NCBI GenBank assembly: GCA_020436935.1
Contig: JAGQWX010000002.1
Coordinates: 62,001-126,000 of the forward strand
DNA from: Saprospiraceae bacterium
Lineage (GTDB): Bacteria; Bacteroidota; Bacteroidia; Chitinophagales; Saprospiraceae
Length of the DNA stretch: 64,000 nt
Direction of reading: 5' to 3'
Below the pieces are notes generated by a model. It made no database searches, was not told the origin of the DNA, and worked only from the letters and a program-made list of their open reading frames with translations. Shown piece by piece: positions 11,943 through 41,156 of this stretch. A program made the position numbers and the translations under genes. Each line of letters starts with the position of its first letter. Within the stretch, counting starts at the first letter, position 1.

Positions 11943-12782
11943 TCAATTGATTGGAATATAATTTTCAGGATTTATTGGAAATCCATTGAACCATAACTCA
12001 AGGTGCAAATGTGGGCCATTGGTAAGGCGTCCTGTATTGCCAATGATGGCTACTGCTTGCCCTGCTTTGACCAGATCACCGGTTTTAACCAGCAATGAGC
12101 TGTTGTGTTTATAAACAGAAACAAGATTCCTGGGATGCTGTACCATTACGGTATTGCCGCCATCGACATTCCACTCAGCCGAAATAACAATGCCACTCAT
12201 GATCGATTTAACAGCAGTATTTTTTGGGGCGGTGATGTCTGAGCCAAAATGCTCAATTTCCGGATCAAACTTGGCTGACACCGTTCCTGATAGAGGTGAG
12301 GCAAAGACCAATTGATTCAATTCCTTGGTTTTGCTAGCTTCCTGCATTGAAGCGTTGTTGACCGTTGTTACTGGTGTTGATGTTTCCCCGGCTGTGTTTT
12401 CTCCTGTTTCTGCTTTCTGTGGAACATCTCCAGGGCTGGCAGACCCTTTCAATAGATTGCTTATCCCTTTATTATAGGCTTCCTGCGCCTGCATCAATTC
12501 TTCCAGTTCATCCACTTTTCTCCTCATCTCGATATATTGCGAATTATCTGTGCCAATGGCGAATCCTGGAATCATTCTTTTGATCGGAGTAAAAAAGATC
12601 AGTGCTACTGCAAGAGCACCTATCAAAACCAATAGAGTACTGAGCAGGATATACAGGGTAAGCAGGTTGAATTTGAAAGTATTAACTTCCTTAAGGTCGT
12701 CGTCGTCGATTACCACCAGACGGTAATTGTCCTGCAATCTCTCCAGTAAACTCCTTTTATTTTCTACATCTGCCGATGCCAT
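11943..12782 (-). CDS. Membrane-anchored M23 (LytM-type) metallopeptidase
   Basis: About 279 residues from the ATG at 12782 (MASADVENKRSLLERLQDNY); the frame is open to 12884, but that part contains palindromes more typical of control DNA. A short cytoplasmic N-terminus is followed by one membrane helix (LLTLYILLSTLLVLIGALAV), a coiled-coil-like stretch (YIEMRRKVDELEELMQAQEA) and a C-terminal M23 domain. Zinc ligands are present: HFGSD (His and Asp) and HLHLEL (HxH), so it is probably active or able to bind peptidoglycan. Such proteins cut peptide cross-links in the cell wall or activate amidases. Stands alone. Confidence 0.88.
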   Translation of the reverse strand: MASADVENKRSLLERLQDNYRLVVIDDDDLKEVNTFKFNLLTLYILLSTLLVLIGALAVALIFFTPIKRMIPGFAIGTDNSQYIEMRRKVDELEELMQAQEAYNKGISNLLKGSASPGDVPQKAETGENTAGETSTPVTTVNNASMQEASKTKELNQLVFASPLSGTVSAKFDPEIEHFGSDITAPKNTAVKSIMSGIVISAEWNVDGGNTVMVQHPRNLVSVYKHNSSLLVKTGDLVKAGQAVAIIGNTGRLTNGPHLHLELWFNGFPINPENYIPIN

Positions 12783-12851
12783 CTTATGTTTTTTTTGAGT
12801 GTTGTAAGGTTCTTCATTCTGGTTATGAATGGTTTTTTTTGGCTTTTCAAA

Positions 12852-12876
12852 GGTCAATTGACCAGATTTGCTGGTC
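12852..12876. promoter_or_regulatory. Palindrome cluster upstream of the M23 gene
   Basis: A perfect 12-bp palindrome GGTCAATTGACC (12852-12863) overlaps a second inverted repeat GACCAG-ATTTG-CTGGTC (12860-12876), giving three GGTC/GACC half-sites about 70-95 bp upstream of the preferred M23 start. Possible operator; no regulator is assigned. Confidence 0.35.
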
Positions 12877-12957
12877 TTTATCATTAATAATCAGCGGCTA
12901 TGTGCTTGATTTTGGTGTTCTTGAAATAAGATATCGATTTTAAATCACTTCTTAGAG

Positions 12958-13119
12958 ATACTAATCGGAAATAGATTTGACCACATAATTGCTACCAAAA
13001 AAGCAAATTTCTTCGTTAGAAAGCCTCGCCGGAGTACCCACTCCGTCTGCGTTTTCTGCCTTGAACTTTACTTTTTTGTTTCCACAATTAAAATGATCAA
13101 TCCATTTTCCGATTAGTAT
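12958..13119. repeat. Palindromic dispersed element, copy A
   Basis: A 162-bp element with terminal inverted repeats: the left end begins ATACTAATCGGAAA and the right end is its exact reverse complement, with further imperfect pairing inward. The centre forms a hairpin CGGAGT-ACCC-ACTCCG (13030-13045). Copies B (13153-13312) and C (41009-41156) share the ends, and copy C also shares the centre. No reading frame is conserved. It looks like a non-autonomous palindromic element (MITE-like). Confidence 0.7.
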
Positions 13120-13152
13120 ATTTAAAATAAATTTGCGCAAAATTAGTTATTT

Positions 13153-13312
13153 ATACTGATCGTAAATAGATTTGATCGTGTAATTGCTGAGAAATTTGAG
13201 TATTGTCAGGCTCAATTGGCGGTCTGAAAATTCAAAAAAGAATCCAAACAACGTAAAGTTTGATTTTTTGTTCTCAGATTTGCAACACCTTCAATCCATT
13301 ACCCGATCGTAT
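13153..13312. repeat. Palindromic dispersed element, copy B (diverged centre)
   Basis: Lies 33 bp after copy A in the same orientation. The left end ATACTGATCGTAAATAGATT and the right end CCATTACCCGATCGTAT are imperfect inverted repeats and match copies A and C; TAATTGCTGAGAAATTTG aligns with TAATTGCT in copy A. The centre has lost the conserved hairpin. Confidence 0.55.
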
Positions 13313-13436: not shown

Positions 13437-13613
13437 ATGAGCAGTTTTATCAAAACAATTGGGGGCTTAGCCAAGAAGCAAATCCATTATAAAATAATGC
13501 TGGTTAAAGAAGAAGTCCAAAATACGATTATATACAATCAAAGCGCGTTGACATCGTTTATGAGTAATTATACGCCTGATTTTGAACGAAAAGGACTTAA
13601 AAATACATTTTAG
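13437..13613 (+). CDS. Possible small basic protein upstream of PorW/SprE
   Basis: An open frame of 58 codons starting at ATG 13437 (MSSFIKTIGGLAKKQIHYKI at the N-terminus, ending ERKGLKNTF). It ends 8 bp before the ATG of the PorW-type gene, so the two could be cotranscribed. It has no membrane segment and no recognised family. Supporting it: ATG start and close spacing. Against it: short length and no known counterpart. It could also be a decayed gene remnant next to the repeat elements. Confidence 0.3.
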   Translation: MSSFIKTIGGLAKKQIHYKIMLVKEEVQNTIIYNQSALTSFMSNYTPDFERKGLKNTF

Positions 13614-13621
13614 TGCGATTG

Positions 13622-16600
13622 ATGAAATTTAAAATCCATACTTCCTACATTTTCAAAGCCATGATCCTTATGGGCCTCGTGGTATTTCTTAGCGCATGTG
13701 TAACTAAGAAAAAGAAGGGAGACGTTTCTAAGTTAGGTAAATTTTACCACAATACTACGTCAGAATACAATGGCTACTTTAATGCCAATGAGCTGATGAA
13801 GGAGAGCGTTGCCATCCTCAGGGAGAACAACAATGACAATTATTCAAATTTGCTGGATATCTACGACTATGTATCTGTCAATGATCCAAAAATGGTATAT
13901 GGTCAGCTGGATAAAGCGATTGAAAAAGTAACCAGAGTTGCAGCCATCCATTCTCCCGGAGATTGGGTAGATGATTCCTATGTCCTCATGGGTAAAGCCC
14001 AATTCATTAAGCAGGATTATGAAACATCTGTAGAAACTTTCGAGTACTTCCAGGATGCCTTCAACCCTTCCAACCCATTTGGTAGGAACTATCAAAAAAG
14101 AAAATTGCAAAAGACCAATAGCAAGGCTGCAGCCAAGCAAAGGAAAAAAGAACAGGAAGCAATCCAAAAGGAACGCGAGGAAACACGTGAGGCTACCCAA
14201 AAGCAAAGAGAAAACGATAGAAAAGCTCAGCAAAAGAAAAAGGAAGAGGAACAAAAGGCGCGCAAAAAAGCCGCTGAAGACAGAAGGAAAAAGGCCAGCA
14301 GTTCACGGGGCAACTCCAGGTCAAATACGACCAGAACGACAAGAGCAAATCCCAGTACTGCCCAACCGGCTGCAAATGTAGCTACAAAGGATAGTTCAGC
14401 AACTTCTACGCCTCCTAAAGTAGTCGAAAAGGCTCCGGATCCCAAAAAAGAAGAACCAAAGCCCGATGATAATACGCCTCCAAAAAAAGATAAAGCTGGT
14501 GAGTCAGCCTACTATGAAGGTATGATGTGGCTTGCAAGAGGATATATCAGAACTGAGCAATATTCCAATGCTGAATATCTTCTGAAAAGAATTGATGAAC
14601 TGACTGATCACAAGAAGGAAGTAAAAGTTGGCTGGAATCCGACAATGGCAGATCTCATGATTCATGAGAAAAGATACAATGAAGCCATAACTTACCTTGA
14701 GAAGTCCATTGAGACTGCTGAGCGAAAAGAAGATAAATCCAGGTATGCATTCATTGCCGGTCAGATCATGAGCATGCAAGGTGATTACGCTTCTGCCGGG
14801 GAATATTTTGAAACAGCTATGAAGCGGGCCGGCAAGAACTTCAAGCTTCGCTTTATGGCAGAGCTCAATCAGCTCAAGAACTATGCGCTCAGTGGAAGAA
14901 AAAGTCAGCGTGAAGTAGAGACTTCACTCGAAAAAATGCTTGCTGAAGAGAAAAACAAGTTGTATAAAGATCAGATCTATTATGCGCTTGGTGACATTGC
15001 ACTCAATAAAGGTGATAAGGAAAAGGCCAGAGAATTTTATTCTTTGAGCGTTCGCAATAATGTATCGGACCAGGTATTGAAAGGAGAAGCGTTTTACAAA
15101 GTGGCCAATATGTACTACCTGGATAAAAACTACCTCCAGGCTAAGCTTTACTTTGATTCGACAGCACTGGTTATGGTCGAAAAAGACCCAAGAAAGACTG
15201 AGGTGCAGGCATTGGCCCAAAAGCTTGCCGGCGTTGCAGCAGCCATAAAAGAATTGAATGAACTGGATACCCTTCTGGCCATGGCCAGCATGGATGAAGC
15301 CAGTTTGTACAAAATTGCCAGAGACAGAAAAGCGAATGCAAAAGGAGCAAACACTAAAAAGCTTGATTCAAACACGACAGATTCAGGGCTATTCATTGGC
15401 AAATCCAGAACGGTTTCACTCAATTCCACATTTTTTGCTTACAATCCCATCAACATAGAAAACGGCAAGAAGGAATTCGCTGACAAGTGGGGCAAGGTCA
15501 ATCTTGAAGACAACTGGCGAAGGAGCAACAAGTCATTGTCTGCATCAGGAAGCCTTAATAATGACCAGGCTTCAAGTGGTGCAACTGAGAAAGAAGAGAA
15601 AATTGATGAGGAGGAGTTCAAAAAATTGATGGCTGATGTACCATTTACTTCAGACCAAAAGGCTATAGTTCTTCAGAAAATCAATGCGGCATTGTATAGA
15701 GCCGGTTCTGCGCTTAAGCTTGATCTTGAGGATTATAAAGAGAGCAACAGAATGCTTGAGCGATTGATCGCTAATGAAGATCATGGTTTTGACAAGCGCT
15801 TGGACGCCCTTTACTTATTGTACACCAACTACAATACATTAGGAGATCAAACCAATGCAAACAGGATAAAAAACATGATACTTAGTCAGTATCCAGAGTC
15901 CAATTATGCAAAAATTATCAATGATCCTTCTTATGTCAATCAATTGATCAGCGAATCAATGGCTGTTGACAATTATTATGAGGATACTTATAAAATGTTT
16001 GAACAAAGGAACTACGCCAATGTGGTAGCCAGGGCCCAGGAATCGGTCACTTTATTTGGTGAAGACAACCCGTTCAAAGCAAAGTTCTCGCTTATAAAAG
16101 CGATGAGCATTGGATTTCTTGAAGGCAAAGATGCATATGTAAAGGCCTTGCAGGAAACTATTGTAAGATATCCCGGCACTCCTGAGGAAACTAAAGCCAA
16201 AGAAATCACGCGATTCCTTAAAGGAGATGAATCTTCTTTCAGAGAAGTGGACATCAAAGAAGTTGATAACATCTACAGTAAAGAAGATGATGCCAGACAT
16301 TATGTGGTTGTAGTTTTGTTTGATTATAGCGATAAGGTCCTGCAGGAAGCCAAAATTGCAGTCCTCAATTACAACAAACAATACTTTAAGCTTGAAAACC
16401 TTCAGCTGGGAGATCAAATCCTAAGTAAGGATGAAAGCACACAAGTCATTCTCGTGAGAAGTTTTGACAATATGGCGAAGGCAAGAAAGTACTACGATAC
16501 TGTCATCAAGGATCAGGAAAAATTCATTCCATCATCGGTAACTGCATATGAGTTGTTCCCTATTACACAGCGAAATTTCCGCAAGATGGTCAATGAGAAA

Positions 16601-16645
16601 TCACATTCAGGATATAGAACTTTTTTTGAGGCCAACTACAAATAA
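13622..16645 (+). CDS. sprE: PorW/SprE-type TPR lipoprotein of the type IX secretion system
   Basis: A 1007-residue outer-membrane lipoprotein: signal peptide with lipobox LSAC (Cys26), then KFYHNTTSEYNGYFNANEL, a hallmark start of the PorW/SprE family, followed by many TPR-like helices. The protein is needed in relatives for T9SS secretion and gliding, probably linking the OM translocon to the PorLM motor. An unusual Lys/Arg/Glu-rich, then Pro/Ser/Thr-rich insertion (about residues 155-295) separates the first TPR block from the second. The ATG at 13622 is preferred over the GTG at 13613. The C-terminus (YVVVVLFDYSDK, FEANYK) is typical. Cotranscribed with the deacetylase-family gene 8 bp downstream. 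Confidence 0.85.
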   Translation: MKFKIHTSYIFKAMILMGLVVFLSACVTKKKKGDVSKLGKFYHNTTSEYNGYFNANELMKESVAILRENNNDNYSNLLDIYDYVSVNDPKMVYGQLDKAIEKVTRVAAIHSPGDWVDDSYVLMGKAQFIKQDYETSVETFEYFQDAFNPSNPFGRNYQKRKLQKTNSKAAAKQRKKEQEAIQKEREETREATQKQRENDRKAQQKKKEEEQKARKKAAEDRRKKASSSRGNSRSNTTRTTRANPSTAQPAANVATKDSSATSTPPKVVEKAPDPKKEEPKPDDNTPPKKDKAGESAYYEGMMWLARGYIRTEQYSNAEYLLKRIDELTDHKKEVKVGWNPTMADLMIHEKRYNEAITYLEKSIETAERKEDKSRYAFIAGQIMSMQGDYASAGEYFETAMKRAGKNFKLRFMAELNQLKNYALSGRKSQREVETSLEKMLAEEKNKLYKDQIYYALGDIALNKGDKEKAREFYSLSVRNNVSDQVLKGEAFYKVANMYYLDKNYLQAKLYFDSTALVMVEKDPRKTEVQALAQKLAGVAAAIKELNELDTLLAMASMDEASLYKIARDRKANAKGANTKKLDSNTTDSGLFIGKSRTVSLNSTFFAYNPINIENGKKEFADKWGKVNLEDNWRRSNKSLSASGSLNNDQASSGATEKEEKIDEEEFKKLMADVPFTSDQKAIVLQKINAALYRAGSALKLDLEDYKESNRMLERLIANEDHGFDKRLDALYLLYTNYNTLGDQTNANRIKNMILSQYPESNYAKIINDPSYVNQLISESMAVDNYYEDTYKMFEQRNYANVVARAQESVTLFGEDNPFKAKFSLIKAMSIGFLEGKDAYVKALQETIVRYPGTPEETKAKEITRFLKGDESSFREVDIKEVDNIYSKEDDARHYVVVVLFDYSDKVLQEAKIAVLNYNKQYFKLENLQLGDQILSKDESTQVILVRSFDNMAKARKYYDTVIKDQEKFIPSSVTAYELFPITQRNFRKMVNEKSHSGYRTFFEANYK

Positions 16646-41008: not shown

Positions 41009-41156
41009 AACTGATCAGAAATAGAATTGTCCACATCGATGCTGATAAAATGAATCATATCTTCGTTACAAATACTCGCTGGAGGCACCACTCCAGCTGT
41101 GTTTTGTGCCTTGATCTGATCGCATCCAAAATGGACATTCCATATCCGATCAGTAT
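41009..41156. repeat. Palindromic dispersed element, copy C
   Basis: About 148 bp. The left end AAACTGATCAGAAATAG and the right end CATATCCGATCAGTAT are imperfect inverted repeats and match copies A and B. The central block TCTTCGTTACAAATACTCGC, hairpin GCTGGAG-GCACCA-CTCCAGC (41078-41097) and GTTTTGTGCCTTGAT aligns base for base with copy A. In the hairpin, one C-G pair of copy A is a T-A pair here (covariation). Confidence 0.7.

What the first reader, a model, noticed from the sequence alone, without database searches (positions are those of the whole stretch)
12958..13312. Tandem palindromic elements with a third copy 28 kb away and covarying hairpin
Copies at 12958-13119, 13153-13312 and 41009-41156 share inverted ends (ATACTgATCGgAAATAG-like) of roughly 20-25 bp. 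Copies A and C also share the central block TCTTCGTTAnAAA to TGCCTTGA. At the central hairpin a C-G pair in copy A (13030/13045) is a T-A pair in copy C (41080/41095), which suggests selection for the fold. No coding frame is kept. Two copies lie 33 bp apart before a T9SS gene. It may be a MITE, a REP-like element, or an RNA element made from intergenic DNA.
Basis: seen in the sequence. Interest (0 to 1): 0.65.

Follow-up and report, generated by a model that had tools for sequence, protein, structure and literature searches.

The report
Bacteria-wide mobile hairpin, ERIC-like
The repeats are members of a jumping, non-coding 160-bp DNA family that always folds into one long hairpin around the same small core, found in genomes from several bacterial phyla and probably related to the classic ERIC repeats of gut bacteria, whose mobiliser has never been identified.

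Summary
Copies A (12959-13118) and C (41009-41155) belong to a family with roughly 100-140 copies in this genome; B (13154-13311) is a decayed member. The family is mobile: one copy splits a transposase gene with a TA duplication, and 23 of 27 copies in two related genomes carry identical 3-bp TNA duplications. It has no orientation bias towards genes and encodes no protein. The fold is under selection: 27 of 50 pairs have double changes in this genome, and the stem pairs in 53 cores from several phyla. One strand folds better in 101 of 105 loci. The arms are unrelated in sequence between hosts but always self-complementary and about 57 nt long. The core (AGGCnnAAAACGYAG ... CGAGnnTTTnnAACG) recurs in Bacteroidota, Proteobacteria, Clostridia and Bradymonadales. 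It is absent from Rfam and from the searchable literature. The closest known kind is ERIC: same TA target, TACT-like ends, strand asymmetry and AAGGC/AACG-flanked helix; formal homology stays below threshold. No matching autonomous element or transposase was found. Best reading: an ERIC-like, MITE-type foldback transposon moved in trans, whose folded strand is needed for spread.

The parts
12959..13118 (-). Copy A, full-length 160-bp element TACT-AA-TCGG ... CCGA-TT-AGTA; the '-' strand is the better-folding strand; flanks GA / TA (target duplication decayed on the left)
   Evidence: 181.9 bits
13014..13061 (-). Conserved core of copy A: AGGCnnAAAACGYAG - apical hairpin - CGAGnnTTTnnAACG
13030..13045 (-).
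12959..13013 (.). Left arm of copy A, pairs with the right arm
13062..13118 (.). Right arm of copy A
13154..13311 (-). Copy B, degenerate member: ends kept, core lost
41009..41155 (-). Copy C, subfamily II, 147 bp because of a short deletion in one arm

Best explanation
A family of non-autonomous, foldback DNA transposons of MITE/ERIC type. Shown: (1) it is mobile and inserts at TA or TNA with duplication of those 2-3 bp; (2) the unit is TACTNN...NNAGTA, 160 bp, with no protein; (3) the whole unit is one hairpin, and changes in the arms are compensated; (4) an asymmetric core is kept across phyla while arm sequence is free; (5) one strand is the folding strand. Inferred: a DDE transposase supplied in trans cuts the ends, and only copies whose folded strand (a transient single-stranded hairpin or a transcript) keeps the core and pairing go on spreading. 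The core would be bound by a factor shared among distant bacteria. Hosts tolerate copies between genes and purge them from genes.
For: Copy number and subfamilies. Insertion inside a DDE_Tnp_1 gene with an in-frame empty site only if TA was duplicated. TNA duplication identical in 23 of 27 copies of G037 and G008; over the whole tested set 23 of 35, shuffled mean 10, maximum 21. Element present in two Acidovorax genomes and absent at the orthologous locus in two others. Covariation: score 0.367 against 0.137 shuffled and at most 0.063 slid; 0.732 against 0.202 shuffled and at most 0.194 slid. Arms outside the search pattern pair at -49.7 kcal/mol against -17.0 when swapped. Strand asymmetry: 101 of 105 loci, and G-U 89 against A-C 15 cells. 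Placement: 37 of 39 intergenic, 9 against 10 orientation. Fixed core-to-end distance of 55-58 nt in three unrelated arm families.
Against: No autonomous partner was found: no DDE_3 (IS630) gene in the genome; three DDE_Tnp_1 matches, one of them the interrupted gene and one below cut-off; no longer element with matching ends in 1.2 Mb or in two Acidovorax genomes. Ordinary MITEs keep their ends and lose the middle, whereas this family keeps its middle and changes its ends. Nothing shows expression or protein binding.
Confidence: 0.68

Rival explanations
1. Plain MITE: derived from an IS by internal deletion and moved only through its ends; the fold is a by-product of template switching between arms and has no role.
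For: TIR-like ends and TA/TNA duplication; one copy (L046) looks template-switched into a perfect palindrome.
Against: Template switching would erase G-U pairs and the asymmetric internal loops, yet they are kept in 101 of 105 loci and across phyla. The middle, not the ends, is conserved between hosts.
Confidence: 0.2
2. A transcribed structured RNA (cis-regulatory or sRNA) that host cells keep at many loci.
For: Strong compensatory change and RNA-like G-U strand asymmetry. Published work: ERIC RNA in Yersinia alters mRNA stability (PMC2229807).
Against: No orientation bias (9 against 10), random intergenic context, neighbours with no common theme, patchy presence (11 of 296 genomes of the phylum).
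Confidence: 0.06
3. REP/REPIN-type element moved by a RAYT or IS200-like HUH transposase acting on the single-stranded hairpin.
For: Strand-specific folding; the genome has two Y1_Tnp genes.
Against: The Y1 genes are not flanked by the element; HUH transposition makes no target duplication (established knowledge), whereas TA/TNA duplications are seen; 160 nt against 20-40 nt for REPs.
Confidence: 0.04

Closest known systems
ERIC / IRU / RU-1 (enterobacterial repetitive intergenic consensus)
   Same: Intergenic foldback repeat; TATAC(T/C)...(A/G)GTATA ends with a paired variable base next to them; TA at the termini; one strand clearly folds better (-62.7 against -50.3 kcal/mol); a helix flanked by AAGGC (5') and AACG (3') in Kosakonia, Klebsiella and Pantoea copies (0 of 1500 null windows, 0 of 1000 shuffles); no known mobiliser (PMC2229807).
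   Different: 127 bp, about 25-nt arms instead of 57; the rest of the core differs; CM scores only 5.7-8.6 bits, E 0.26-1.8, at the same place in 4 of 5 copies tested and insignificant in E. coli copies.
Correia/NEMIS and RUP (RUP: IS630-type MITE)
   Same: Small, palindromic, TA target duplication; copies hit transposase genes (RUP and Neisseria MITEs, PMC2229807).
   Different: RUP is tied to IS630-Spn1 ends in one host; here no IS630-type gene is present and the ends differ from host to host.
IS5 / PIF-Harbinger-type MITEs (TNA target)
   Same: 3-bp TNA duplications in G037 and G008; CTAG-like targets in Acidovorax and G004; that these targets mark IS5-type transposases is recalled, not tested.
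   Different: No autonomous IS with these ends was found; MITEs of that kind are not known to me to share a conserved core.

Membership tests
MITE (general) | Short, non-coding, inverted terminal repeats, several copies | tested here: met
   160 bp, roughly 100-140 copies
MITE (general) | Target-site duplication | tested here: met
   TA at the L007 insertion; TNA in 23 of 27 copies of G037/G008
MITE (general) | Ends match an autonomous IS in the genome | tested here: not met
   (own genome: ends searched genome-wide at up to 3 mismatches, pairs checked in 1.2 Mb)
ERIC | TATAC...GTATA ends at TA targets, intergenic | tested here: met
ERIC | Sequence homology to the ERIC consensus (127 bp) | tested here: inconclusive
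   CMs sub-threshold; shared AAGGC/AACG-flanked helix
REP/REPIN-RAYT | 20-40 nt hairpin with GTAG-type tag and linked RAYT | tested here: not met
   size 160 nt
IS630-type MITE (RUP) | IS630 transposase in the same genome | tested here: not met
   PF13358 absent
Any Rfam RNA family | Match to a covariance model | tested here: not met
Mobile element needing its fold | Mobility lost when the fold is broken | not testable with these tools
   needs a bench transposition assay

The most novel reading that the evidence does not exclude
A phylum-spanning class of mobile hairpins recognised through a conserved structural core in their folded strand (RNA or single-stranded DNA) rather than through fixed end sequences: arms may take any sequence if they pair and place the cut about 57 nt from the core. 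ERIC would be its enterobacterial branch with shorter arms.
Probability: 0.3. Interest if true: 0.92.

Novelty: new variant of a known kind. Interest (0 to 1): 0.72.

Why it matters
ERIC repeats have been known for over 30 years without a mobiliser. A family with the same plan in several phyla, a defined core, defined ends and duplications makes the mobiliser searchable by co-occurrence and testable in a donor assay. A transposon that keeps its middle and lets its ends drift in compensated pairs is the reverse of normal MITE evolution. The family is absent from Rfam and goes unannotated in genomes; a covariance model now exists for it.

Tried and rejected
(1) Variable end dinucleotide re-sampled at each insertion: rejected; nearest copies share it, but it changes about five times faster than the average column and stays paired in 28 of 32 (5.8 expected). 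(2) Insertion into pre-existing TATACTnnnnAGTATA palindromes: none found beyond chance. (3) RAYT/IS200 linkage: none. (4) Autonomous partner: none. (5) Neighbouring genes with a common function: none. (6) Empty site in plasmids: no informative hits. (7) Literature: no paper in the library prints the core; MITE papers for Thiomargarita and Cardinium describe other elements. (8) Presence in viral contigs: 0. (9) Constant arm length as proof of a molecular ruler: not claimed, because indels would need a matching indel in the other arm, so constancy can follow from pairing alone. (10) A loose end-pair scan was too noisy to use.

Full report
What was checked. A has 32-nt arms that are 78% complementary. 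BLAST of A and C against the own genome gives about 50 and 65 places, in two subfamilies. An end pattern gives 138 matches against 2 for its reversed control. In 1.22 Mb of fetched sequence (contigs partly chosen because they carry copies) a covariance model of 32 copies finds about 40 members, from 43-bp remnants to 238-bp forms. The three largest contigs carry about 20 per 0.8 Mb, which gives roughly 140 for the genome. Copy B keeps only the ends.

The unit and its mobility. The ends are TACT-NN-TCGG ... CCGA-N'N'-AGTA, 160 bp, usually flanked by TA. One copy (L375, G000:C94) splits a transposase gene (DDE_Tnp_1). The two halves rejoin in frame only if the insertion is the 160-bp unit plus a duplicated TA; homologues run collinearly across the join, one residue longer. 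In two other genomes of the order (G037, G008) 23 of 27 copies carry an identical 3-bp TNA on both sides, in G037 for arm families with unrelated sequence; G013 shows TA. In Acidovorax one copy is present in two genomes and missing at the orthologous place in two others. The intergenic DNA there is too diverged to read the junction.

The fold. In 32 copies of this genome 95.6% of pair cells are paired, 27 of 50 pairs show double changes, and the covariation score is 0.367 against 0.137 shuffled and at most 0.063 when slid. The minus strand of the window folds better (mean -67.8 against -57.5 kcal/mol), because G-U pairs lie on that strand (89 G-U against 15 A-C cells). The end dinucleotide NN is the most variable fully paired position, yet is complementary in 28 of 32 copies (5.8 expected); it is inherited, not re-drawn at each jump.

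The family elsewhere. R1 finds the element in 16 of 61 relatives, nearly always 155-167 nt, though arms differ entirely between genomes. What is shared is a core: AGGCnnAAAACGYAG, an apical hairpin, CGAG(GC or TA)TTTnnAACG. A pattern of this core (about 23 fixed bases; my estimate of chance matches is about 0.1) hits at least 119 stretches in the species collection: mostly Saprospiraceae and other Bacteroidota, but also Acidovorax, Vandammella, Herbaspirillum, Ideonella, Rhizobium, Neorhizobium, Pasteurella testudinis, Clostridia and Lujinxingia. None is in viral contigs. The invariant letters are partly built into the pattern, so independent evidence was sought outside it. The 57-nt arms beyond the pattern pair at -49.7 kcal/mol against -17.0 when swapped between loci. 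In 53 diverse cores the stem, mostly outside the pattern, covaries at 0.732 against at most 0.194 slid. The core strand folds better in 101 of 105 loci. The distance from core to end is 55-58 nt in three unrelated arm families, including Acidovorax. In an even sample of the phylum 11 of 296 genomes are positive, so the spread is patchy.

Context. 37 of 39 sampled copies lie between predicted genes, in the same mix of tandem, divergent and convergent gaps as the background, with no orientation preference. Neighbouring genes in other phyla are ordinary housekeeping genes. This is what a tolerated mobile element looks like, not a regulator. The gene after A and B is porW/sprE.

Mobiliser. None identified. 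There is no IS630-type gene and no RAYT linkage. No longer element with the same ends was seen in 1.2 Mb of this genome, in two Acidovorax genomes or in the loci examined. TA and TNA duplications point to a DDE transposase; which one is open.

Comparison with the known. Rfam has nothing, and no held paper prints the core. ERIC is the nearest known element: TA-flanked TATAC...GTATA ends with a paired variable base (TACTC/GAGTA, TACCC/GGGTA), strand asymmetry, and a helix flanked by AAGGC and AACG exactly as here (none in 1500 null windows or 1000 shuffles; 12 of 33 own copies pass the same strict test). The likeness was noticed from memory and then tested, so it is post hoc. R2 places its match at this position in four of five non-E. 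coli ERIC copies tested (two of them identical in score and annotation context) but below significance, and E. coli copies do not match. Working like ERIC: likely. Member of the ERIC family: undecided.

Verdict. An ERIC-like, MITE-type foldback transposon family spanning bacterial phyla, with a conserved structural core and free, compensated arms. Mobility and selection for the fold are shown by comparison; the mobiliser, and whether RNA or single-stranded DNA is the folded form, are inferred or open.

Noticed in passing
L048-L054, L027-L030, L063-L075 (G000): In about 13 copies the apical hairpin is replaced by a ~65-100 nt module (CCGTTAAAAAGTCG..CGACTTTAGGG-CTGAACTGGGACCTCCGCGTCCCAG) with its own covarying stems; it lies in opposite orientation in subfamilies I and II and was found only inside these elements.
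   Followed up: partly
L163 8101-8143, L120 11192-11234, L145 17858-17922, C104:126422-126464: 43-65 bp remnants consisting only of the paired ends: internal deletions of the hairpin.
   Followed up: partly
L046 (G000:C101:35152-35315): One core half is replaced by the perfect reverse complement of the other half: a likely template-switch event.
   Followed up: no
L344 3960-4010 (Cupriavidus plasmid pRK1-5): An IS481-family element appears to end directly at the CTAG-like end of a hairpin copy; IS481 relatives are known to me to favour CTAG.
   Followed up: no
L100/L087 (G010:C10), L291, L267: Two same-orientation, near-identical copies flank one gene (DUF4143 ATPase; phosphoesterase-like 942 aa; unknown 677 aa): possible composite units.
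   Followed up: partly
L003, L004, L018, L022 (G000): An extra small hairpin (CCCTACA..TGTAGGG) replaces part of one arm in several copies.
   Followed up: no
window 13613-16645: T9SS lipoprotein gene porW/sprE downstream of A and B; M23 peptidase gene (11943-12884, minus strand) on the other side.
   Followed up: yes
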